Source: Candidatus Latescibacterota bacterium (lineage in GTDB: Bacteria; Latescibacterota; UBA2968; UBA8231). From it: a DNA stretch of 28,021 nt. Position numbers and translations under genes: made by a program. Below, piece after piece: positions 178 through 25,080 of the stretch. Positions within the stretch are counted from its first letter, which is position 1; every line of letters starts with the position of its first letter. The DNA is taken from assembly GCA_003529325.1 (NCBI GenBank), contig DPVW01000148.1, forward strand, positions 25,772 to 53,792, written 5' to 3'. Under the pieces are notes generated by a model. That model was not told the origin of the DNA, ran no database searches, and worked only from the letters and a program-made list of their open reading frames with translations.

Positions 178-1254
178 TTAGCTCAGGTGGCTGCGGAGAA
201 AGTCGAGGGTGCCCTGCAGGCGGATCTCATGGCCACCCTCATGCAGTTCGATGCCGATGCGATCGTCGATACCGAGGCGGCGGTAGTGTTCGGCCGAGGC
301 TTCGTACTCCTGTATAACCTGGGGCCACCAGGCGATGCCATCCGCCTTGCCGTGCTCGATGAAGAAGGGCCGGGGGCAGATGAGGGAGACGAGATCGGAG
401 TCGGTGAATTCGCGCAGCCACCCGGGAATCCACACGTGCTCTTCGTCGACGGAGAGAAAACAGGAGTATCGTGGATCGTCGATGGCCATCTTGTTCGGGC
501 GGTGATTGAACCAGGCACAGGCGGCGGCACAGGTGATGCGCGGTTCCAAAGGGGTCGTGAACATCGTGTAGGCGCCGCCGAGGCTGATCCCATACATGCC
601 GACGCGTGACATATCTACATCCTGGCGAGTTTCCAGATAGTCGAGCAGGCGCTGTGTGCGGGCGATCTCCACGCCCCACAGTGTGCGTCCCATCAACGAG
701 CACAGCCGTGTCAGACGGGCGCGTGGGTGGGCGCCGGAGACGTTCATGGGCGCCAACACGGCAAACCCTTCCTCCACGAGACGCCGGCCATACGCCTTGT
801 AGATGTCGGCACCATCGTCGAGGCCAAAGACCTTTTCCGGGGACGAGCTGATGCCGTGCTGGGCGATCACGAGAGCGGGTTTCTGGCCGTCTGACGTCTT
901 GGGGAGTGCGAACAGGGCGCGGGCGCGTAGTCCACCGAAGAAGTCCATCGTCAACCACCAGACGCTCATCTGCTCGTCCTCGAACCAGGGCTCGAGAACG
1001 GCATCGAAAGGTCGATCTTCCCGCGTCGGAACACCGACAGCATCCGCCCAGCGTTGCCGATTGCCCTGCAGAGATTTCTCATAGGCATCGATGGATGAAT
1101 AGTCCCGTTGCCAGTGCTCGGACTGGCGGGGTCCGTAGTCTAGAATCTCCGTGCGAAAGGCGTCCTCTGCCTCGTGGCGCAATAGGCGCTGGCGGTCGCT
1201 GATCCAGCGTGAAACGGCGCCTGCGTCGGCAGCAAAGGGATTGCTTGGGTTCAT
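178..1254 (-). CDS. Alpha/beta hydrolase (dienelactone hydrolase / acetyl xylan esterase-like)
   Basis: 358-residue serine hydrolase of the alpha/beta fold, probably cytoplasmic because no signal peptide is seen. The nucleophile elbow GISLGG is at residues 222-227 (Ser224). The likely acid is Asp305 in HGKADG and the likely base is His342 in EGGHE, giving a Ser-Asp-His triad in the usual order. QHGISS at 132-137 fits the oxyanion-hole strand. Large hydrolases with this layout are often annotated as acetyl xylan esterase or dienelactone hydrolase family; the substrate is not predictable here. The frame is open upstream to 1380, but the ATG at 1254 is chosen because it overlaps the upstream PhyH stop by 4 bases (ATGA), the pattern used throughout this window. 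It is probably cotranscribed with PhyH, globin-ankyrin and pyrD. Confidence 0.85.
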   Translation of the reverse strand: MNPSNPFAADAGAVSRWISDRQRLLRHEAEDAFRTEILDYGPRQSEHWQRDYSSIDAYEKSLQGNRQRWADAVGVPTREDRPFDAVLEPWFEDEQMSVWWLTMDFFGGLRARALFALPKTSDGQKPALVIAQHGISSSPEKVFGLDDGADIYKAYGRRLVEEGFAVLAPMNVSGAHPRARLTRLCSLMGRTLWGVEIARTQRLLDYLETRQDVDMSRVGMYGISLGGAYTMFTTPLEPRITCAAACAWFNHRPNKMAIDDPRYSCFLSVDEEHVWIPGWLREFTDSDLVSLICPRPFFIEHGKADGIAWWPQVIQEYEASAEHYRRLGIDDRIGIELHEGGHEIRLQGTLDFLRSHLS

Positions 1255-2132
1255 CGTGCCTCGTGGGTCTGCGTGGCGATCTTGGCGCGCCATTCGTCGC
1301 CATACCGATTCACGAATTGCTCGAAAAAGGCGCATGTGTGTTGGTCGAGATCCGCCAGGTATCCGGCGGTATCGAACCACGGTTGATCTGAGAAGTAGTC
1401 GAAGCGTGGGTGCATCGACGATGTGTAGGTCAGCATCAATGTGCGACGCCGCTTGTCGGTGTGATAGCGCCCCCGGTGCAGTGCCAGCGGGTTGAAGGCG
1501 ACGGCATCCCCTGGGGCCAGGGCAACGCGTAGTGCGCCTGGCATCGCATTCGAGCGGTTGTTGCGTTGCTCGTCGGCACGGCGGATCGCATACTCCGCGT
1601 CGGTGTCCCAGCGTCGGTGCGAACCGGGCACGACCTCGACATCGTCAGAGGGCACCAGGGCGACCTGCAACTGCACGCTGCGGCCGAGGTCACCGCCGGC
1701 GTCGATGGCCTGACGCTCCTCTTCCTCGTCCGGGTGGTGGAACTGGCTGTCACGATGCCAGTTGCCGTTCTGGCTGTTGGATTCAGGATTCATGAACAGA
1801 CTCGTGCAGCGAAACAGCGGCTCCGCGTCGAGGATGGCGTGACAGACGTCGAGCACGGCGGGGTCGGCGACGGCCTGTAATAGATCGACCAAACCCCTGG
1901 CACTGTCCTGACGGAAATACCGCGGATGGTTGAGATGACGCATGACGGTGGCGTCCGGGCCGCCGCCGGGTTCTCCGGTCTCCGGATTGCACTCCCGCCA
2001 CTGATCCAGGATCGACTCGGCGATGGCACCGAGGCGCGCCGCCCGTGTGCTGTGGATCAATCCGGAGACGACGATGTATCCGTCCCGTTGCCAGTGGTTG
2101 GCTAGATCGTCTGGTCTGCGATTCTGCGTCAT
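1251..2132 (-). CDS. Phytanoyl-CoA dioxygenase family protein (PhyH-1)
   Basis: 293-residue Fe(II)/2-oxoglutarate-dependent oxygenase of the PhyH family. The N-terminus has the family pattern of a short helix followed by DGYIVVSGLI (17-26). The iron-binding His-x-Asp is H126-R-D128 in NWHRDSQFH. PGSH at 169-172 and the distal His219 in LALHRGRYH follow, with Arg230 placed to bind the 2-oxoglutarate carboxylate, so all expected catalytic residues are present. PhyH proteins hydroxylate diverse small molecules and lipids; the substrate here is unknown. It overlaps both neighbours by 4 bases (ATGA at 1251-1254 and 2129-2132), implying translational coupling with the globin-ankyrin protein upstream and the hydrolase downstream. 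Confidence 0.9.
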   Translation of the reverse strand: MTQNRRPDDLANHWQRDGYIVVSGLIHSTRAARLGAIAESILDQWRECNPETGEPGGGPDATVMRHLNHPRYFRQDSARGLVDLLQAVADPAVLDVCHAILDAEPLFRCTSLFMNPESNSQNGNWHRDSQFHHPDEEEERQAIDAGGDLGRSVQLQVALVPSDDVEVVPGSHRRWDTDAEYAIRRADEQRNNRSNAMPGALRVALAPGDAVAFNPLALHRGRYHTDKRRRTLMLTYTSSMHPRFDYFSDQPWFDTAGYLADLDQHTCAFFEQFVNRYGDEWRAKIATQTHEAR

Positions 2133-3685
2133 CGTTGCCGTGGTTCCCTCGCGCTCTGTAAAACTCGTCGTATCTCGTCGGCATCACCGCGGCGACTACG
2201 CCTTGCCATTTCCCTGAAGGTAGTACCGACCGCATTCGCCCGGTCGATCTTTGCTCCATGTGTGACAAGCAGAGCCACCATGGCCGCCACGTCGGCACGC
2301 TTGCCCGCCTTCATGGCGTACATCAGTGCTGTATCGCCGTCGTCGCTCACGGCTTCGATGTCGCAGCCATGCTCGAGCAGGGCCTGCGTTGTCCGTAGGA
2401 AACCAGCCTTCGCAGTATAGTGCAATGCCGTGGCGCCACGTAGACGCGTCTGTGGATCCGCACCACAAGCCAGGAGTCTGGCGACAAGATCGGGATTGTC
2501 GCGTTGACTGTTGTTGCCGGTGCAGGAGCGCCAGATCCAGTGACCGGCGGGATAGTTGACGTCAGCGCCTCGTGCCAGCAGCAGCGTGGAGATCTCCGGT
2601 GCCAACACCCAGGGCCCCGGTCCCACCCTGGTGGCATCGGCGCCATGCTCCAGCAGCACATGTACGAGTCGGGGCAGATGATTGTTGGCCGCATGCTTGA
2701 CCATGGCACTACTGTTTTTTCCGACCTGGGCGCCATGCGCCAGCAGCCAGGTCACGAGATCGGTGTGTCCACCATAGACGGCGTGGTGCACGGGGGTGTA
2801 CTGCAGCACATCACTGGCGGGATCGGTGACCATGGCCAGTTCCGGGTCGCGACCGACCCAGTCTGCAACCGCCGCCAGGTCACCCAGATAACTGGCGGAA
2901 AAGATGTCGTACAGCGCACCCCGTGTGCGCAGCAACTGTGCCGTCTCTAGCCGGTTTTTGGCCAGTGCACCACATAAAGGTGTCAGCAGAAAGCTCTGGA
3001 AGATGCAGCCTTCCTTATAGTGAGCGGGAATGTTTGGATCGACGCCTGCGTCAAGCAACGTCTCGACGACTTGAGTGCGGCCCTTCAGTGACGCTTCCAG
3101 CAGGACTTCTGCCATCTCGATGGCATCGGCGACCAGCTGCGGCTGTTCGTGCAGCGCTTCGGTCAAGCCGACGGCGTCCCCCTTGCCTGCCAACTGTCGG
3201 ATCGAGCGAAAGGGACTGAGGCGACGACACCGCAGATCGGTTGGTCTGGCAGGTGGCCCCTCCTCGTTGACGAAGGATCGTGCCAATGGCCGCGCGATTT
3301 GCAGAATGTCTTGTCGAAGTTGGGCGCTTTCCACAGCGGCCCCGAGAGCCTGCTCGAAGTGTCCGAGCCACGCATCCGCCGCAGTGCGAGTGATGTGAAT
3401 GTGGCTGTGCCGATGCTGCAGGCCACTATAGGCGTGATGGTGTGTCCATTCCGGTCTGCCTCCCAGCCACTCACAGAAAAAGTTCTTCTGTTTGGCCCGT
3501 TCCCCGGCAAGGTCGGCGACAAACATGGGGCGCAGACCGGCATCGGCGTCGATGCCGGCATACAACTGATCGACCAGGAGATCGACCACCGGGCGGCCAC
3601 CTATTCGTTCGAGCAGACCCGCGTCGGGTGCCATCGACTGGATCCGCCTCTCGAGCCCCCCACGATGCCGGACATGTTTGTGCAT
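2129..3685 (-). CDS. Truncated-hemoglobin / ankyrin-repeat fusion protein
   Basis: 518-residue, apparently soluble two-part protein. Residues about 22-142 match a group II truncated hemoglobin: LLERIGG near the start, Tyr42 at the B10 position, LRPMF at 51-55, a His-rich stretch with His93 aligning to the proximal F8 ligand, and the group II Trp in DAWL (Trp106). From about residue 160 to the end are repeated ankyrin units, for example TPVHHAVYGGHTDLVTWLLA (from 297), LEHGADA (345-351), TALHYTAKAGF (419-429) and DTALMYAMKAG (451-461). The globin probably binds heme and O2, NO or sulfide, while the ankyrin part should bind a protein partner; both roles are inferred. ATG at 3685 has a GAAGAGGA purine tract about 13 bases upstream; ATG at 3634, just before the globin core, is an alternative. 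The gene starts 9 bases after pyrD and overlaps PhyH-1. Confidence 0.85.
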   Translation of the reverse strand: MHKHVRHRGGLERRIQSMAPDAGLLERIGGRPVVDLLVDQLYAGIDADAGLRPMFVADLAGERAKQKNFFCEWLGGRPEWTHHHAYSGLQHRHSHIHITRTAADAWLGHFEQALGAAVESAQLRQDILQIARPLARSFVNEEGPPARPTDLRCRRLSPFRSIRQLAGKGDAVGLTEALHEQPQLVADAIEMAEVLLEASLKGRTQVVETLLDAGVDPNIPAHYKEGCIFQSFLLTPLCGALAKNRLETAQLLRTRGALYDIFSASYLGDLAAVADWVGRDPELAMVTDPASDVLQYTPVHHAVYGGHTDLVTWLLAHGAQVGKNSSAMVKHAANNHLPRLVHVLLEHGADATRVGPGPWVLAPEISTLLLARGADVNYPAGHWIWRSCTGNNSQRDNPDLVARLLACGADPQTRLRGATALHYTAKAGFLRTTQALLEHGCDIEAVSDDGDTALMYAMKAGKRADVAAMVALLVTHGAKIDRANAVGTTFREMARRSRRGDADEIRRVLQSAREPRQR

Positions 3686-3694
3686 GGGGAGGGG

Positions 3695-4798
3695 TCAGTC
3701 CTCTTCGTGGCCGGCGCCGATGGCCTGAGACAGGTGGGTGAAGCCGTCTCGGTCGAGCAGTTGTAGCAGACCACGGTGGATGCGGCGCACCAATCCAGGT
3801 CCGTGGAATACGAGTCCCGTGTAGAGTTGAATCAGCGACGCGCCCAGGAGGATCTTGTGGTATGCGTGTTCGGCGCAGGTGATCCCGCCGGAACCGATGA
3901 TGGCGTATTTCGTGCGATCCATACGCCCGTACCAGAAGCTGATGGTGTCGTCCATCATGGTGCGGGCCGGTGCGCCACAGAGGGTACCCGGCATGGGATC
4001 GACGACGGATTCCGGCGTCCGCAGGTCATACGCTTTGCCCGGCGGCAGATTGAAGATGAAGCCGGCGACTGACACGTAGGGGTCGATTGCCAGCAGCAGA
4101 TCGTCGGCGCGCTTGGCGTCCTGATGGGCGGTGAATTTGAGAAATATCGGTGGTAGGCCATCTATACGGCTGAATTGTTGCAGCAATTCCTGCAGTCGGC
4201 TGCTGTCGTCGAAGGGGCTGACACCGGCGGTCGTGTTCGGGCAATTCAGGTTCAGTGTCAGGTAATCGGCGCGTCCGCAAAAGGGTCGGGCTGCCGCAAC
4301 GAATTCGCCGACGACGGCAGCCGGATCCGTCGGTTCCCCGGTATTAGTCTCCACCAGGTTGACGCCGAGGGGGACCGGTGTCGGCGCCGCGTGGACACGC
4401 CGTGCCACGACTGCGGCACCGTCATTCGGAACACCATAATTGACGACGATGGCTTCATCCTCGGGCAGGCGGAACAGGCGTGGTTTTGGGTTGCCGACAG
4501 ATGGCTGCGCCGAGATGGAACCGATCTCGACAAAACCGAAGCCGATCTCGGAGAGGGCACGGATGGCGCGACCGCTCTTGTCGAAACCGGCAGCCAGACC
4601 GACGGGGTTGGGGAAGTGGATGCCGGCAACGTCGGTGGCGAGGCGATGGTCGGTGACGTGGAAGCAGAGACGCCGCAGCAGGGCTCGCCCCGTGGAGGAG
4701 GTCCCGGCGGCCGTGGCCGCCGACAGCGTCCTCTCGTGGACTTTTTCGGCGTCGAAGTAGAACAGCAGAGGTCGAAGGAAGTGTCGGTAGAGACCCAT
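3695..4798 (-). CDS. pyrD: Dihydroorotate dehydrogenase, class 2-like, with Cys at the catalytic-base position
   Basis: 367-residue flavoprotein expected to oxidise dihydroorotate to orotate in pyrimidine synthesis, passing electrons to quinone at the inner membrane. Class 2 features are the N-terminal membrane-associating helix (MGLYRHFLRPLLFYFDAEKV), NPVGLAAGFDK at 64-74, GNPKPRLFRLPEDEA at 102-116, and the C-terminal IIGSGGI, GASLIQLYTGL and GPGLV segments at 300-337. It is divergent: the usual NRMGFNN is NYGVPND at 120-126, and the active-site loop reads LNLNCPNT with Cys186 where class 2 enzymes have Ser, a class 1 feature. The frame is open upstream to 4936, but 4798 gives the standard N-terminus and leaves the divergent promoter free. 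No strong ribosome site is visible. It is the first gene of the minus-strand cluster ending at 1. Confidence 0.85.
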   Translation of the reverse strand: MGLYRHFLRPLLFYFDAEKVHERTLSAATAAGTSSTGRALLRRLCFHVTDHRLATDVAGIHFPNPVGLAAGFDKSGRAIRALSEIGFGFVEIGSISAQPSVGNPKPRLFRLPEDEAIVVNYGVPNDGAAVVARRVHAAPTPVPLGVNLVETNTGEPTDPAAVVGEFVAAARPFCGRADYLTLNLNCPNTTAGVSPFDDSSRLQELLQQFSRIDGLPPIFLKFTAHQDAKRADDLLLAIDPYVSVAGFIFNLPPGKAYDLRTPESVVDPMPGTLCGAPARTMMDDTISFWYGRMDRTKYAIIGSGGITCAEHAYHKILLGASLIQLYTGLVFHGPGLVRRIHRGLLQLLDRDGFTHLSQAIGAGHEED

Positions 4799-4850
4799 CG
4801 TGGTGCCAAAGGTGGTTGCCTCACACTCTATTGACAAGCGCTTGGGTCCG

Positions 4851-4879
4851 TTGACAAGGTCTCTCAGGCGGAATAGTGT
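4851..4879 (+). promoter_or_regulatory. Putative sigma70-type promoter of the GntR-ABC operon
   Basis: TTGACA at 4851-4856 is a perfect -35 box. A 17-base spacer leads to TAGTGT at 4874-4879, a weak -10 hexamer (3 of 6 consensus positions). This places transcription start about 45-50 bases before the GntR ATG at 4935. The weak -10 coincides with the left arm of the operator at 4875-4898. A second TTGACAAG copy at 4831-4838 lies exactly 20 bases upstream. Confidence 0.5.
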
Positions 4880-4898
4880 ATTAGGTAAGTAGAACACT
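4875..4898. promoter_or_regulatory. Putative YtrA-type operator, AGTGTA-N12-AACACT
   Basis: An imperfect inverted repeat: AGTGTA at 4875-4880, a 12-base spacer, and AACACT at 4893-4898; 5 of 6 arm positions are symmetric. As I recall, the operator described for Bacillus subtilis YtrA is AGTGTA, 13 bp, AACACT, so the arms are the same and the spacer differs by one base. It overlaps the presumed -10 box and lies 36 bases before a YtrA-like regulator gene, as expected for autorepression. It is also 77 bases upstream of pyrD on the other strand. Confidence 0.65.
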
Positions 4899-4934
4899 GG
4901 AACACATGCCATGCTGACGGAAAGGGCCCGATCC

Positions 4935-5309
4935 ATGCCGGTGGAGTTTGATCCGACGCGGCCGATTTATCTGCAGATTATGGATTCGGTGAAAAAGAAG
5001 ACTGTGCGTGGACTCCATGCGCCGGGTGCACAGTTGCCGTCGGTGCGCGACATGGCGGCGAGGATGGGGGTCAATCCCAACACGATGGCGCGCGCCTACC
5101 AGGAACTGGAGAGGGAAGGTTTCGTCGAAACCCGTCGCGGCGAGGGCTCATTCGTCACCATGGATCCCGCGAAGATTGACGATGAACGACAGCGGCTGGC
5201 CGAATCGGCGCGGCGTCAGTTCACCGAACAGATACGTGACCTCGGGCTGACCACCGCTCAGACGCACGAGTTGTTTGAACAGATCGACAAGGAGACAAGG
5301 AAACAATGA
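4935..5309 (+). CDS. GntR family transcriptional regulator, YtrA subfamily
   Basis: 124-residue short GntR regulator. The N-terminal winged helix-turn-helix covers about residues 5-76: PIYLQIMDSV, GAQLPSVRDMAARMGVNPNT, then MARAYQELEREGFVETRRGE and the wing GSFV. Only about 45 residues follow, predicted helical, which is the YtrA type: no ligand-binding domain, just a dimerising tail. ATG at 4935 has a GGAAAGGG ribosome site 8 bases upstream; the ATG at 4911 has none. YtrA-type regulators usually repress an adjacent ABC transporter operon, and here the stop overlaps the ABC ATPase start by 4 bases (ATGA). An operator-like inverted repeat lies over its promoter at 4875-4898. The inducing signal is unknown; relatives respond to cell-envelope-active compounds. 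Confidence 0.9.
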   Translation: MPVEFDPTRPIYLQIMDSVKKKTVRGLHAPGAQLPSVRDMAARMGVNPNTMARAYQELEREGFVETRRGEGSFVTMDPAKIDDERQRLAESARRQFTEQIRDLGLTTAQTHELFEQIDKETRKQ

Positions 5310-5998
5310 GGATCGAGGTGGACAATCTGTGGAAACGGTATCGCCGCAAAGTGGCGTTGCGCGGCTTGAGTCTGTGTTTCGAGCCAGGGCGGGTAACGGG
5401 TGTACTGGGTGAGAATGGCAGCGGCAAGAGTACACTGTTCCGTATTGTCGCAGGGGTGACGGGTGCGAGTGAGGGCACGGTGCGCATCGATGGGAATGAC
5501 GTGGGTGTCAGAACCCGTGGCGAGACTGCGTATCTGCCCGAGACCGACTCTTTCTATTCGTGGATGTCGGTGGGTGAACAGCTGGAATTTCTCTCCGCCT
5601 TCTATACCGGTTGGGATGCGGTCAAGGCTCGGGAGTTGCTCGATTTCATGCGGCTCACACCGGGGGACCGGATCGACGAACTCTCCCAGGGGCAGCGGGC
5701 GCGTCTGAAGATCGTCGCCGCTTTTGCCTGGCCGAGTCGACTTGTCGTGATGGACGAACCGTTCAACGGTATCGACCCGCCATCAAGACGGCGTATTCTC
5801 GAGGCGCTGGTGCGCCAGTATCGCGTCGACACGCAGACGATCCTGATCTCCACGCATATGGTGTATGAGGTGGAGGGGTTGGTGGAGGACGTCGTCTATC
5901 TGCGCGATGGTCAGGTCGCGATCGAGGGGCGGGCTGACGATCTGCGGGCTGAGAAGGGTGGATCGTTGTCGGACATCTTCGAGGGGATCGTACTGTGA
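5306..5998 (+). CDS. ABC transporter ATP-binding protein
   Basis: 230-residue ABC ATPase, complete and typical of YtrB/EcsA/CcmA-like subunits that pair with ABC-2 type permeases. Walker A is GENGSGKST at 35-43. The signature motif is LSQGQ at 126-130, a slight variant of LSGGQ. Walker B is LVVMDEP at 146-152, and the H-loop His is 184 in ISTHM. It should power the membrane protein encoded next, with which it overlaps by 4 bases (GTGA), and it is probably under the control of the upstream GntR regulator. Export of a peptide, antibiotic or lipid, or an envelope-stress role, is the usual guess for such sets; nothing in the sequence names the substrate. Confidence 0.93.
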   Translation: MRIEVDNLWKRYRRKVALRGLSLCFEPGRVTGVLGENGSGKSTLFRIVAGVTGASEGTVRIDGNDVGVRTRGETAYLPETDSFYSWMSVGEQLEFLSAFYTGWDAVKARELLDFMRLTPGDRIDELSQGQRARLKIVAAFAWPSRLVVMDEPFNGIDPPSRRRILEALVRQYRVDTQTILISTHMVYEVEGLVEDVVYLRDGQVAIEGRADDLRAEKGGSLSDIFEGIVL

Positions 5999-6735
5999 AT
6001 CCGCTGGTTGCTTTATACGTCAAGGAGCTGAAAGGCATTCGGCTGGTGGGGGCTGTGTTGACTGTGGCGACGGCAGCCATCGTCCTGGTTGTGCTCAATG
6101 ATGCCGCTGATGGGGGGATACACCTATCGATGGCGCTGTTGATCCTGCCCTACATGTGTCCCCCCGTATTGGCCGGTCTGCTCATGCATGCCATCTCTCA
6201 GGAGTGGGCGGGCAATACTCAACATCAGTGGCTGGCGCTGCCCGTGCCACGATCGACTCTGTTGCTGACAAAGATGGCGGCGGTATGCACCCTTGCGGTG
6301 GCCATCTACATGCTCAACACCTTCGCCCTGTACATGATCTACGAGCAGGTCCTCGACACGGTGCAATCGGGGAGCATGTCACCCACACCTGCCGGTCCCA
6401 TGAAGATCGAAGCCGGGGAGTTGTGGGTGTTCACGGGAGCTCTCTTTGGCTCACTGACATTGCTGCTGCTTGGACTGGGACTTGCCGCTGCCAGTCTGAA
6501 AATGATGCTCAATCGTTTCAGAGGACTGTTGACGGTCGCCGTTTTTCTGGGGGGACTGTGGTTGACGGAGCGTCTCGCACCTTCAGTAACCGGGGCGATT
6601 CAATCGATGGAATCGATGCCGCTGGACCGGTCCGTCCTGACAGCCGCCTTTGACGGCTATCTATATCTGGCAGTGATGGGTATCGCCTTCAGCGTCGCTG
6701 GTCTATACGTCTTCGATCGATACGCCGACGCCTAA
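5995..6735 (+). CDS. ABC-2 type transporter membrane subunit
   Basis: 246-residue integral membrane protein starting with GTG at 5995, overlapping the ATPase gene by 4 bases. About six hydrophobic segments can be seen, near residues 17-36, 43-65, 92-116, 141-166, 175-191 and 222-240. Between the second and third is SQEWAGNTQHQWLALPVPRS, the cytoplasmic coupling motif of ABC-2 permeases (the family pattern is a Glu near a Leu-Pro-x-x-Arg stretch). It should form a transporter with two copies of the ATPase. It is the last gene of the three-gene operon and ends 15 bases before the convergent SDR gene. I see no convincing terminator hairpin between them. Confidence 0.85.
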   Translation: MNPLVALYVKELKGIRLVGAVLTVATAAIVLVVLNDAADGGIHLSMALLILPYMCPPVLAGLLMHAISQEWAGNTQHQWLALPVPRSTLLLTKMAAVCTLAVAIYMLNTFALYMIYEQVLDTVQSGSMSPTPAGPMKIEAGELWVFTGALFGSLTLLLLGLGLAAASLKMMLNRFRGLLTVAVFLGGLWLTERLAPSVTGAIQSMESMPLDRSVLTAAFDGYLYLAVMGIAFSVAGLYVFDRYADA

Positions 6736-11482: not shown

Positions 11483-12391
11483 ATGAAACCGACACAACAA
11501 CAGCTTGAGGAGTTCGAGGCGCAGGGCTTTCTCGTCGTCCGTGGGGCCCTTGCCGATGCCGATCTCGACCCCGTGATCGAGGAATACGAAGCCCACATCG
11601 ACCGGCGTGCACGGCAATTGCAGGCGGAAGGCAAGATCTCAGAGCTGCATGCGGGAGCACCCTTCGATCAGCGTCTGGCGCTGATCTGCAGACAGTGCAA
11701 CGAGATCTATCCCGAACTCGATATCATGAGATTAAGAGGCCGGGCGTCCTTTGCCTTTCTCGGCAATGACAATCTGCTCGACATGGTGGAGGCCTTCGTC
11801 GGCCCCGAGATCACCTGTAGTCCCATCCAGCACATTCGGCCGAAATTGCCCGGGGGTCTGGCGCCTCGGGGGGCCGATCCGCATGTCGCACCCTGGCACC
11901 AGGATGCAGGTGTCACCTGGGAGGATGCGGATCCCGTCTTTATTCTGACGGTGTGGCTGCCCTTGTCCCCGGCGCGACCCGAGAATGGTTGCTTGCAGAT
12001 CATCCCCCGCACGCATGGCACCGGGGTGCTCGCGCACGTCATCCGAGCGGGGCAGGGAACGGTGATCGTTGACGAGCAGATGCCGGACGCCGAACCGCTG
12101 ACACTGCCCATGGACAAGGGGGATGTCCTGCTGTTGCACAAGGAGATTCCCCATCGCTCGACGTCGAATCGCTCGGACACGGTACGGTGGAGTATGGACC
12201 TGCGTTATCAGCCGACCGGGACCCCCACAGGGCGTCCCTTTCATCCCGAGTTCGTGGTCCGCAGTCGTGCCAATCCGGATTCGGTACTCACCGAATGGTC
12301 GGTATGGGACCGGCTGTGGGCGGAGGCGCAAGCGAAAGCGGCGGTGGACAAGCCGCGGGGTCATCGATGGAAGTCGGTGCCAGCCAGGTAG
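11483..12391 (+). CDS. Phytanoyl-CoA dioxygenase family protein (PhyH-2)
   Basis: 302-residue Fe(II)/2-oxoglutarate oxygenase with every expected residue. EAQGFLVVRGAL (12-23) is the N-terminal family pattern. The iron motif is H139-Q-D141 in APWHQDAG, NGCLQIIPRTH at 168-178 is the core strand, the distal ligand is His224 in EIPHRSTSN, and Arg235 should bind 2-oxoglutarate. The APWHQD plus PENGCLQIIP arrangement resembles small-molecule hydroxylases of the PhyH family rather than lipid-acting ones, but the substrate is unknown. It is a single plus-strand gene, divergent from the Gfo/Idh/MocA gene and convergent with the ABC exporter, whose stop is 8 bases away. The ATG at 11483 lacks a properly spaced ribosome site and may belong to a leaderless transcript. 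Confidence 0.92.
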   Translation: MKPTQQQLEEFEAQGFLVVRGALADADLDPVIEEYEAHIDRRARQLQAEGKISELHAGAPFDQRLALICRQCNEIYPELDIMRLRGRASFAFLGNDNLLDMVEAFVGPEITCSPIQHIRPKLPGGLAPRGADPHVAPWHQDAGVTWEDADPVFILTVWLPLSPARPENGCLQIIPRTHGTGVLAHVIRAGQGTVIVDEQMPDAEPLTLPMDKGDVLLLHKEIPHRSTSNRSDTVRWSMDLRYQPTGTPTGRPFHPEFVVRSRANPDSVLTEWSVWDRLWAEAQAKAAVDKPRGHRWKSVPAR

Positions 12392-21161: not shown

Positions 21162-22007
21162 TTAAACGATAAACTGGCTGGGTGTACGGGTCGATTCGTA
21201 GCTGATACCAGGATCGGCGGTGCGCACCGCTTCAGGAATCTCGCCCGTCCACCAGGATGGCGGCTGTGGGAACTGGAACACGTCGTGCCATGCCAGGATC
21301 AGCGTGCGCCGCTGATCGGTGCCGTTGGGCCAGGCGCCATGCATGAGGCGGGCATCGCCGATGACGAGATCACCAGCCCGCAGTGGGACGTCGATGGCAT
21401 CGTCGCGATCGAGGAAGGCGGGATGGCCGTAGTCCTCGAGGGCCTGAATCTCCGCTTCGTGTGCATTGGGCAGAATGTCGTGCAGATCGATGCGGTGACG
21501 ATGCGTGCCGGGAATAACGCGCAGACAGCCATTGTCGCGGTTGGTGTCGGTCATGTAATAGGACAGGAAGATCTTCGTCGGCCACGGCGTCGCCGCTGCC
21601 GGGCTGTTCCAGTTTATGTAATCCTGATGCCAGTAGAGGGGCGGACCGAAGGCCGGCTTGGACAGCAGGATGACGACGTCGTGGGCGCGCAGATCCTCCA
21701 TGCCGATGGCGGCGCAGACGGCGAGCTGCTGTGGTTGATCGATGATGCGTTCAACGATGGGATCGGCGAATCGGCGTTCGTCGGGCACACGATCCGCGGG
21801 CCAGCTGCGTTCTGTGGCAACATGCATGTCGGAGCCCTGGTAACGAAACTTCGGATCCACTGGCAGGCGATCGAAGACCTCGTCAGACCAAGTGCGGAGG
21901 TCGTTGAGCAGATCGTCGGGCATAATCCCGGGAAGGATAGTGTAGCCATCGTCGACCAGTTGCTGTCGGCAACGCAGGGCGTCGGTCTTGGGTAGTGGGT
22001 CGATCAT
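21162..22007 (-). CDS. Phytanoyl-CoA dioxygenase family protein (PhyH-3)
   Basis: 281-residue Fe(II)/2-oxoglutarate oxygenase. VDDGYTILPGIM (18-29) is the N-terminal family pattern. The iron motif is H127-Q-D129 in LYWHQDYINW, DNGCLRVIPGTHR is at 158-170, the distal ligand is His223 in ARLMHGAWPN, and Arg233 or Arg234 should bind 2-oxoglutarate. LYWHQDxxNW and NGCLRVIPGTH are typical of the bacterial PhyH group that is expanded in sponge symbionts. The start overlaps the deacetylase-like gene by 4 bases (ATGA), and the sugar-binding protein follows 12 bases later, so it belongs to the sugar-uptake run. The substrate may be the imported molecule, but this is inference. Confidence 0.92.
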   Translation of the reverse strand: MIDPLPKTDALRCRQQLVDDGYTILPGIMPDDLLNDLRTWSDEVFDRLPVDPKFRYQGSDMHVATERSWPADRVPDERRFADPIVERIIDQPQQLAVCAAIGMEDLRAHDVVILLSKPAFGPPLYWHQDYINWNSPAAATPWPTKIFLSYYMTDTNRDNGCLRVIPGTHRHRIDLHDILPNAHEAEIQALEDYGHPAFLDRDDAIDVPLRAGDLVIGDARLMHGAWPNGTDQRRTLILAWHDVFQFPQPPSWWTGEIPEAVRTADPGISYESTRTPSQFIV

Positions 22008-23452: not shown

Positions 23453-24352
23453 TCAGGCCACATCGAAATCGAGGGCGTCGAGTTCGGCGCGCAGACGCCG
23501 TTCCCCCGCATCGTCGAGGGCGGGGACCACGCGCGGGGGACCTACGGGCGTGCCACGCCAGCCGAGCATGGCTTTGACGCCGGCGAGCACACCGACCTCG
23601 ATGAGGATGCGGATGACCCGGTTGGCGTGCAGTTGACAGGTGCGCGCCTGCTGCAGATCACCGGCGTCAAATGCACGTCTCATCTCGAGGTAGATCTTGG
23701 GCATAATGTTGTACGTCGTGCCGATGGCGGCATCGGCGCCCATGCACATGGCGGGAAGGGCCATCTCGTCGGGACCACTGATGGCGTTGATGCGGCCACC
23801 GGACCGATCGATGAGCTGGCCGAAAAGGTAGAGGTTGTGGTCGGTGAACTTGATGCCGGCAAAGTGTGGCACCGCGCCCATGGCGTCGAGAAAGAGGTCG
23901 GCTGTAACCCTCTTGTCGGCTTCGCCCTGCAGCCAGTAGACGTAGAATGGCAGGTCTGTCGCCTCGCCGATCGCACGGTAGTGGGTCACGGCGGAGTCGA
24001 GATCGTTGGGGCTGTCGATGGGGGCGACGGAAGCGACGGCGTCGATGCCATCGATGTGCTTTGCATGCTGGGCAAGTTCGACGGCATCTTCGGTGGAGCA
24101 GGCACCGACCTGGAGAATGATGGGGACCTGCCTGGCGACCTCGTCGGCGACGACTTCAGCGACATTCATGCGTTCAGGCACGGACATGCCTTTGCCCTCG
24201 CCCGTGCCGCCACAAACGAAGAATCCCTGCGAGCCGACCTCGAGCAGCGCCCGTGTCAACGAGCGCTGGCGGTCGGCATCGATATCGCCACCATCGTCCG
24301 TGAAGGCCGTACACAGGGCCGGCAGGATGCCTGTCGCCAGTCGGGTGCTCAT
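23453..24352 (-). CDS. Dihydrodipicolinate synthase / N-acetylneuraminate lyase family aldolase
   Basis: 299-residue TIM-barrel class I aldolase. GGTGEGKGMS at 48-57 is the substrate-carboxylate loop. Tyr139 in PFYVYWLQG and Lys168 in AGIKFTDHNLY are the catalytic Tyr and Schiff-base Lys. GIKFTDxNxY is nearer to N-acetylneuraminate lyase and related sugar-acid aldolases than to true DapA, which suggests pyruvate-releasing cleavage of a sugar acid, but the specificity is not proven. Context supports a catabolic role, since it sits between a PhyH gene and a deacetylase-like gene upstream of a sugar importer. The ATG at 24352 shares one base with the upstream PhyH-4 stop (TGATG). Confidence 0.9.
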   Translation of the reverse strand: MSTRLATGILPALCTAFTDDGGDIDADRQRSLTRALLEVGSQGFFVCGGTGEGKGMSVPERMNVAEVVADEVARQVPIILQVGACSTEDAVELAQHAKHIDGIDAVASVAPIDSPNDLDSAVTHYRAIGEATDLPFYVYWLQGEADKRVTADLFLDAMGAVPHFAGIKFTDHNLYLFGQLIDRSGGRINAISGPDEMALPAMCMGADAAIGTTYNIMPKIYLEMRRAFDAGDLQQARTCQLHANRVIRILIEVGVLAGVKAMLGWRGTPVGPPRVVPALDDAGERRLRAELDALDFDVA

Positions 24353-25080
24353 CAGTCCACCTCGGGAAAGTCGATCGGCGTACGCTGACCGACGTAGGGT
24401 GGGCGCAGCAGATCGCGTTGCAGATCGGTCGTGGCCTTCTCACGAAGGGGTTCGAGTCCCTCCGGTCGCCCCCAGGTGGAATAACCCGGGGAGTATTTGT
24501 ACAACAAAGAGCGACGCCGGTTGCTGGACGTCCACTGCCGGGTACCGTGAACGAGGGCCTCGGTGAAGATCAGCATGTCGCCAGCCTGCAGAGTCGGGTT
24601 GACGACGAGATGACTGTCGACCTCTGGTTTGTAGGTGTTGATCGCCGCCTTGTGACTGCCCGGTACACAGATAAAGCCGCCATCGCCAGGATTGACGTCT
24701 TCGAGGGCATACATGACGACGATGAGGCCATTCCACATCTTGCCATAAGCCCACTGGTATTGGTGTTCGCCCTGGTCGGCGCGCAAACCCCCGTGGAGAT
24801 TGTCGCGCACGTCGGACTCAGCCTGCAACTGGATGGCGTAGGCGTGATCGAGACGCAGCCAGTCACCGATGATGGTGCGCATGATATTCAGCGTGCGCGG
24901 GTGTGCCATCAGCTGCAGAAAGATTGGGTCGCACTCGGCGAAGCCGAAATGATCGGATGTTGACGCTGTGATCTTGTCGTCGAGGATGGCATTCATGCTT
25001 GCCACATCAGTCGGCGAAATCAGTTCACGATAGAGGATATACCCATTGAGGTCGAACTCGTAGATCTCCGCTTCAGTCAT
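24352..25080 (-). CDS. Phytanoyl-CoA dioxygenase-like protein with HGG in place of HxD (PhyH-4)
   Basis: 242-residue PhyH relative, first gene of the long minus-strand run ending at 12400. FDLNGYILYRELI (9-21) is the N-terminal family pattern and GDGGFICVPGSHKA (132-145) the core strand. The distal His178 in EALVHGTRQW and an Arg cluster at 188-190 are in place. The iron motif position reads LHGG at 95-98, so His96 is present but the Asp two residues later is Gly98. In non-heme iron halogenases this same Asp-to-Gly/Ala change opens a halide site, but here another residue could supply the carboxylate, and LHGG recurs in a PhyH subgroup as I recall it. The other three PhyH proteins of the window keep HxD. 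It overlaps the lyase gene by one base. Confidence 0.85.
   Translation of the reverse strand: MTEAEIYEFDLNGYILYRELISPTDVASMNAILDDKITASTSDHFGFAECDPIFLQLMAHPRTLNIMRTIIGDWLRLDHAYAIQLQAESDVRDNLHGGLRADQGEHQYQWAYGKMWNGLIVVMYALEDVNPGDGGFICVPGSHKAAINTYKPEVDSHLVVNPTLQAGDMLIFTEALVHGTRQWTSSNRRRSLLYKYSPGYSTWGRPEGLEPLREKATTDLQRDLLRPPYVGQRTPIDFPEVD

What the first reader, a model, noticed from the sequence alone, without database searches (positions are those of the whole stretch)
2129..3685. Truncated hemoglobin fused to an ankyrin-repeat domain, in an operon with pyrD and a PhyH oxygenase
One continuous frame carries a complete group II-like truncated globin (Tyr42, His93, Trp106) followed by about 350 residues of ankyrin repeats. 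Truncated globins are normally stand-alone proteins of about 120-140 residues. An ankyrin tail would tie a gas- or redox-binding heme domain to a protein partner. Its neighbours are a flavin dehydrogenase (pyrD) and an Fe/2-oxoglutarate oxygenase, so an oxygen-, NO- or sulfide-sensing or O2-delivery adaptor is plausible but inferred. I know of no characterised example of this architecture.
Basis: partly seen in the sequence, partly recalled or inferred. Interest (0 to 1): 0.72.

Follow-up and report, generated by a model that had tools for sequence, protein, structure and literature searches.

The report
Truncated hemoglobin fused to ankyrin repeats
This gene really does encode a small bacterial hemoglobin joined to a specialised ankyrin-repeat domain; the same design recurs under many bacterial phylum labels, its ankyrin half is as strictly conserved as its heme half, its job is unknown, and its neighbours pyrD and PhyH look incidental.

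The parts
2129..3685 (-). globin-ankyrin fusion gene, 518 aa
   Evidence: single ORF, Pfam Bac_globin plus ankyrin families; AlphaFold pLDDT 93.9, pTM 0.90
3272..3622 (-). truncated-globin domain, residues 22-138; Tyr42 B10, Phe55 CD1, Glu62 E7, Gln66 E11, His93 F8, Trp106 G8
   Evidence: fold match over about 21-143, sequence matches to solved truncated hemoglobins, invariance of Y42/F55/H93/W106 in 172 non-identical sequences; position names E7/E11 rest on recalled B. subtilis YjbI numbering
3656..3667 (-). N-terminal HRGG motif, residues 7-10, ahead of the globin
   Evidence: H7 93% and R8 95% of weighted sequences
2144..3139 (-). ankyrin solenoid, residues 183-514, about ten repeats by my reading of the model's helices
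   Evidence: Pfam, model helices, fold matches to ankyrin-1 and DARPins, mainly for 350-513, repeat layout
2513..2539 (-). WIWRSCTGN segment, residues 383-391, running into the long helix A-B loop of repeat 7
   Evidence: W383 170/171, C388 165/171, T389 158/171, G390 156/170, N391 150/169 in fused relatives aligned there
2810..2824 (-). DPASD motif, residues 288-292
   Evidence: D288 171/172, P289 171/173, D292 172/173 in fused relatives aligned there
3695..4798 (-). pyrD-like quinone-type dihydroorotate dehydrogenase; the listed start at 4936 overlaps the divergent gntR, so the Met at 4798 is the likelier start (inference)
   Evidence: context only, not found in relatives' flanks
1251..2132 (-). 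PhyH family Fe/2-oxoglutarate oxygenase, ATGA overlap with the fusion gene
   Evidence: context only, not conserved
178..1254 (-). dienelactone-hydrolase-like gene, ATGA overlap with PhyH if it starts at 1254 (ORF listed from 1380)
   Evidence: context only

Best explanation
Shown: one protein joins an N-terminal group II-like truncated hemoglobin with an intact set of heme-site residues to a specialised ankyrin solenoid, and the two halves evolve as one unit under many phylum labels. Inferred: the globin binds heme and an O2-type ligand tightly (Tyr B10, Gln E11, Trp G8) and does redox chemistry or sensing with O2, NO, peroxide or sulfide. The ankyrin part, with its fixed pattern of Asp, Trp and Cys residues, binds one conserved partner or ligand, so that the heme chemistry is delivered to, or read out through, that partner. 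It acts as a self-contained module and needs no fixed operon partner.
Against: No biochemical data. No partner or ligand identified. Coupling analysis between the halves was uninformative. Some conserved ankyrin residues (for example H422, G256, A257, G408) are ordinary repeat residues, also kept in most globin-less proteins aligned there, and may be structural. Exact CTGN is missing in 27 of 174 fused sequences; in three of these the stretch itself is not covered, others, including the acidobacterial ones, have a different loop.
Confidence: 0.45

Rival explanations
1. Targeted heme enzyme: the globin is an NO dioxygenase or peroxidase that lacks its own reductase, and the ankyrin half docks the electron donor, much as flavohemoglobin carries its reductase in the same chain.
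For: A heme site with Tyr B10 and Trp G8, invariant in 172 non-identical sequences, and no fused reductase. High-affinity globins usually act as O2/NO redox enzymes (PMC4720485, introduction). A conserved surface is what a universal donor would need.
Against: No reductase recurs among the 27 neighbouring ORFs (17 of the 34 loci) scanned with Pfam. A diffusible donor need not be encoded nearby, so this is weak either way.
Confidence: 0.25
2. Heme sensor: ligand binding at the globin changes the ankyrin solenoid and so its binding to a signalling partner.
For: Two domains predicted with high overall confidence as one unit; ankyrin solenoids are binding modules (established knowledge).
Against: PMC4720485 describes low-affinity globins as the usual sensors, whereas this distal site resembles high-affinity ones (inference). 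No signalling gene recurs among the 27 neighbouring ORFs scanned; single LuxR- and MarR-type neighbours occur.
Confidence: 0.2
3. Operon function with pyrD and PhyH: the fusion supplies O2 to, or protects, the Fe/2-oxoglutarate oxygenase and the flavin dehydrogenase.
For: Tight local spacing: 9 bp after pyrD, ATGA overlaps of the fusion with PhyH and of PhyH with the hydrolase. The globin-less sister ankyrin family sits just downstream of PhyH genes in Poribacterial bins. A PhyH-like ORF starts within 0.4 kb downstream in L002, a same-family genome, beside or overlapping a UxuA-like gene.
Against: 0 of 34 relatives by pairwise search, 4 of 34 by PhyH profile within the flanks held. 151 PhyH matches in the genome. 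The window's own PhyH neighbour is not among the 28 matches to the Poribacterial ankyrin-linked PhyH profile.
Confidence: 0.06
4. Assembly chimera or frame accident joining a globin gene and an ankyrin gene.
For: The genome is a fragmented draft (502 contigs, 5% contamination); four related loci have broken or split frames (L020, L030, L031, L035).
Against: 174 fused sequences in 148 clusters at 90% identity, four loci from named strains, matching divergence in both halves.
Confidence: 0.01

Closest known systems
Group II (O) truncated hemoglobins, e.g. Bacillus subtilis YjbI (1ux8), B. anthracis (5v3t), Agrobacterium (2xyk), M. tuberculosis HbO (1ngk)
   [quoted passage not shown] Glu at E7; Leu at B9; near-invariant Trp73; carries an N-terminal HRGG motif and a C-terminal ankyrin solenoid. 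The listing titles 5v3t and 2xyk as group II; the group of 1ux8 and 1ngk is recalled
Truncated-hemoglobin chimeras (antibiotic monooxygenase in Streptomyces avermitilis, nitrate reductase in raphidophytes, protein kinase)
   Same: 2/2 globin fused to a second domain (passages of PMC7082302)
   Different: here the second domain is a repeat solenoid with no enzyme family match, in 148 clusters at 90% identity
Globin-coupled sensors and flavohemoglobins
   Same: globin plus C-terminal module
   Different: those have 3/3 globins with output or reductase domains (PMC7082302 passages); no Globin (PF00042) hit in this genome
Globin-less ankyrin family of Poribacteria, Latescibacteria and gammaproteobacterial bins (L036-L081)
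   Same: part of the conserved pattern: D260, C238, W383 and often C388/G390; one side of a branch, apart from the fused rows, in a quick tree (SH-aLRT 84)
   Different: no globin; N-terminal 'LTGKxSDFLKI'-type start; CRGD or SRGD in place of CTGN in the 11 members printed; tied to PhyH genes in Poribacterial bins
Ankyrin-1 and designed ankyrin repeat proteins
   Different: no globin; one degenerate repeat (352-378) and a long loop in repeat 7 here

Membership tests
Truncated (2/2) hemoglobin | 2/2 globin fold | tested here: met
Truncated (2/2) hemoglobin | proximal His F8, strictly conserved | tested here: met
   H93 in 100% of weighted sequences; aligned
Truncated (2/2) hemoglobin | two GG motifs and Asp B16 (PMC4720485) | tested here: met
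   G29-G30 97-98%, G75-G76 98-99%, D48 98%
Truncated hemoglobin group O/II | Trp G8, Tyr B10, Phe/Tyr/His CD1 (Trp G8 is shared with groups P and Q) | tested here: met
   W106, Y42, F55 all 100%
Truncated hemoglobin group O/II | no His at E7 (conserved in groups P and Q) | tested here: met
   position 62 is Glu 77%, Gly 12%, His 1%; E7 placed by counting against recalled YjbI numbering
[quoted passage not shown]
   residues 86-92 are YSGLQHR; only Leu89 and Arg92 agree. Hence filed as group II-like, not as a plain member
Truncated (2/2) hemoglobin | binds heme | not testable with these tools
   needs purified protein
Ankyrin-repeat protein | tandem ankyrin repeats above Pfam cut-off and solenoid fold | tested here: met
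   Ank_2 95.1 bits (cut-off 27.3), Ank 82.3 (21.1), Ank_4 67.6 (22.7); fold matches, which tested residues 146-350 less well
Truncated hemoglobin-antibiotic monooxygenase chimera | C-terminal antibiotic monooxygenase domain | tested here: not met
   only globin and ankyrin families at E 0.01 or better
Globin-coupled sensor | 3/3 globin (PF00042) with an output domain | tested here: not met
   no PF00042 match in the genome and no output domain in the protein
Dot/Icm ankyrin effectors (NCBIfam) | score above the curated cut-off | tested here: not met
   best 38.2 bits against a cut-off of 600: generic repeat similarity only

The most novel reading that the evidence does not exclude
A widespread, undescribed class of bacterial heme protein, a 'globin-coupled ankyrin', in which an O2-avid truncated hemoglobin and a dedicated ankyrin receptor groove form one rigid allosteric unit: the heme's ligand state controls, or is controlled by, binding of one universally conserved partner, with no enzymatic output domain.
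Probability: 0.3. Interest if true: 0.75.

Novelty: new variant of a known kind. Interest (0 to 1): 0.5.

Why it matters
Abstracts in my listing say that the physiological functions of truncated hemoglobins are still largely unknown (PMC4304232, PMC6770159). A version that carries a strictly conserved, probably partner-binding domain offers a handle: find what the ankyrin part binds and the function of the heme module becomes directly testable. Copies in named strains (Actinopolymorpha, Trebonia) make this practical. It also shows that a widespread domain pairing can sit in automatic annotation ('truncated hemoglobin YjbI/ankyrin repeat protein') without, as far as my searches reach, a description.

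Tried and rejected
Gene neighbourhood as a guide to function: neighbours differ from lineage to lineage. The close loci L004-L010 and L012 share gene order, as expected by descent, and L002, L020 and L030 share a gene cluster whose L002 member matches UxuA. I saw no neighbour that recurs among distant members. The clustering used a simple ORF chooser and an 80-bit BLASTP link, so distant homologues could be missed; Pfam was run on 27 neighbouring ORFs from 17 of the 34 loci.

PhyH link through the sister family: Poribacterial globin-less ankyrins lie just downstream of PhyH, but those PhyH proteins are close to each other (81-95% identical to the first of 18), so this is one lineage, and the window's PhyH neighbour does not match that profile.

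Inter-domain covariation by mean-field coupling analysis: effective depth 103, top pairs mix all parts of the protein; uninformative.

Search for stand-alone relatives of the globin half: only 100 candidates and 6 hits, too few for a tree of fused against single globins. Whether the fusion arose once is therefore open.

Plasmids: 12 records match, none covering 80% of the query; the 10 listed are globin-only or ankyrin-only pieces.

Fold searches: matches are to single domains; residues 146-350 were barely tested (one search says so), so a distinct relative of that part cannot be excluded.

Papers holding both word sets: PMC4256840, PMC4067076 and PMC6566181 came up; passages seen concern separate proteins, not a fusion. 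The papers listed were not opened.

Full report
WHAT IS THERE. Pfam finds Bac_globin at residues 25-136 (E 2.3e-18, 66.9 bits, cut-off 21) and several ankyrin families over roughly 161-482, the best Ank_2 at 95.1 bits. The window lies in contig C322 of a draft genome of 5.53 Mb in 502 contigs, 85% complete with 5% contamination. I take the host to be a Latescibacterota-type bacterium; this is inference.

HEME SITE. Alignment with solved sequences places Tyr42 at B10, His93 at F8 and Trp106 at G8; Phe55 is CD1. By counting against YjbI numbering (recalled), Glu62 is E7 and Gln66 is E11. In 172 non-identical fused sequences (effective number 104) Y42, F55, H93 and W106 are 100% conserved, Q66 81%, E62 77%. 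Against the group hallmarks in PMC4720485 (section 3, parts 1 and 2 of 9 read): both GG motifs, Asp B16 (D48), Tyr B10, Trp G8 and His F8 are met, and the His E7 of groups P and Q is absent. [quoted passage not shown] I therefore call the domain group II-like. It is the only globin that PF01152 or PF00042 finds in this incomplete genome; other globin families were not searched.

NOT AN ARTEFACT, AND NOT RARE. A protein search gave 1587 hits at E 1e-3 among 7996 scored candidates; 118 of the 120 listed carry both domains by my count, one being the window's own protein. Source names include Gemmatimonadetes, Chloroflexota, Latescibacteria, Planctomycetes, Armatimonadota and Actinopolymorpha. From a distant acidobacterial member the search shows a cliff among its 120 listed hits: 43 fused proteins at 157 bits or more, then ankyrin-only proteins at 108 or less (one short fused fragment lies lower). 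One genome-contig scan found 115 related loci, of which 80 were kept. Of these, 29 hold an intact fused frame meeting my thresholds; L020, L030, L031 and L035 hold broken or split ones, L033 is cut by its contig, and 46 are globin-less. With proteins included, 174 full-length fused sequences were assembled (144 proteins, 29 loci, the window): 166 clusters at 99% identity, 148 at 90%, 95 at 80%. A tree of 30 rows has nine phylum labels and needs 11 label changes where 8 is the least; six Actinomycetota rows form one fully supported group. Bin labels are not always reliable: the window's nearest row, L016 (69%), is labelled Pseudomonadales. Within the phylum the gene is patchy: 6 of 64 held genomes match at E 1e-80, two of these as broken frames.

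THE ANKYRIN HALF IS SPECIALISED. Mean pairwise identity over 14,706 pairs is 0.458 for the globin, 0.467 for the ankyrin part and 0.265 for the linker; globin and ankyrin identities correlate at 0.92. Information per position is 2.42 bits in each half and 1.49 in the linker. Residues that no ordinary repeat demands are nearly fixed: C238 170/174, D260 174/174, D288 171/172, D292 172/173, W359 171/172, W383 170/171, C388 165/171, T389 158/171, N391 150/169. Exact CTGN occurs in 147 of 174; of the other 27, three do not cover the stretch and the acidobacterial-type members keep W and C but have other loop residues. In globin-less ankyrin proteins, of 146 examined and counting only those aligned at each site, D260 is kept in 62/78, W383 in 47/52 and C388 in 32/60, but W359 in 1/50, T389 in 1/60, N391 in 3/60 and H301 in 0/73. 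So part of the pattern is shared beyond the fusion and part is particular to it. Ordinary repeat residues (H422 97/108, G408 99/103) are kept in both sets. A quick tree keeps the 46 globin-less loci on one side of a branch (SH-aLRT 84); the fused rows need 3 changes there, with warnings about long branches.

THE OPERON IS LOCAL. Here pyrD ends 9 bp upstream, PhyH overlaps the stop by ATGA, and a hydrolase overlaps PhyH the same way, so the four genes are probably co-transcribed. That does not carry over. Searching 34 relatives' flanks (up to about 8 kb, some cut to a few bases on one side) with the window's pyrD and PhyH finds neither in any, and the hydrolase in one, L019. A PhyH profile finds a PhyH in 4 of 34: L002, L020, L023, L030; the one in L002 begins 375 bp downstream. 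The genome has 151 PhyH matches, about one per 37 kb, and four PhyH genes lie in this 28-kb window. Pfam on 27 neighbouring ORFs of 17 loci gives families as unlike as a sulfatase, ABC transporter, DEAD helicase, methionine sulfoxide reductase, LysE, trypsin, LuxR and MarR proteins. I conclude that the protein most likely works without a fixed operon partner.

HOW IT MOST LIKELY WORKS. Shown: intact heme-site residues, two confidently predicted domains, equal and correlated constraint on both halves, and a nearly fixed set of unusual ankyrin residues. Inferred: the protein binds heme and reacts with O2, NO or related species; the ankyrin part holds one conserved partner or ligand; the two act as a unit. 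I cannot tell a targeted enzyme (partner supplies electrons or substrate) from a sensor (ligand state changes partner binding). The distal site and the statement that high-affinity globins are usually redox enzymes (PMC4720485) favour the enzyme slightly.

WHAT IS KNOWN. Fusions of 2/2 globins with kinase, nitrate reductase and antibiotic monooxygenase domains are on record (passages of PMC7082302). Full-text searches joining truncated hemoglobin, globin, trHb, YjbI or fusion terms, most with ankyrin, listed no paper on this fusion by title or abstract. Passages of the three papers that paired the words concern separate proteins, and PMC4720485 does not hold the word ankyrin. The library lacks most subscription journals. 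Automatic annotation has already paired the names.

VERDICT. Real, conserved and, as far as these searches reach, undescribed; a new variant of the known truncated-hemoglobin chimeras rather than a new kind of system.

Noticed in passing
L036-L081 (e.g. L037:7992-9158, L046:4783-5949): A globin-less sister ankyrin family ('LTGKxSDFLKI' start, CRGD/SRGD loop). In Poribacterial bins a same-strand PhyH ends within 100 bp upstream in 16 of the 46 loci and within 800 bp in 24 of 46, often with a second PhyH before it. A gene cluster present in 19 loci, often just downstream, matches aminoglycoside 3-N-acetyltransferase in the one member scanned.
   Followed up: partly
whole genome G000; window 1251-2132, 11483-12391, 21162-22007, 24352-25080: 151 PhyH-family matches in one 5.5-Mb draft genome, four PhyH genes in this 28-kb window.
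   Followed up: no
L004-L010, L012: In these close loci the fusion gene sits among other ankyrin-type genes: a 343-460 aa one just downstream on the other strand in seven of eight, and a 569 aa one further on in seven of eight (Pfam run on one).
   Followed up: no
window 3695-4936 and G000:C154:15105-15947: The genome has two dihydroorotate dehydrogenase matches above the Pfam cut-off; the one here is of the quinone type. Its listed start overlaps gntR; Met at 4798 looks likelier.
   Followed up: partly
window 4911-6735: GntR-type regulator, ABC ATPase and an ABC-2-like membrane protein (below the Pfam cut-off) in a row, divergent from pyrD: a YtrA-like regulator/ABC set by its order (name recalled).
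   Followed up: no
L032:929-3466: A bin of the same genus (G001) carries a divergent fused member (36%) in an 845-residue frame with about 310 residues ahead of the globin, without CTGN.
   Followed up: no
L020, L030, L031, L035: Fused-family loci with broken or split frames; could be sequencing errors, pseudogenes or true splits.
   Followed up: no
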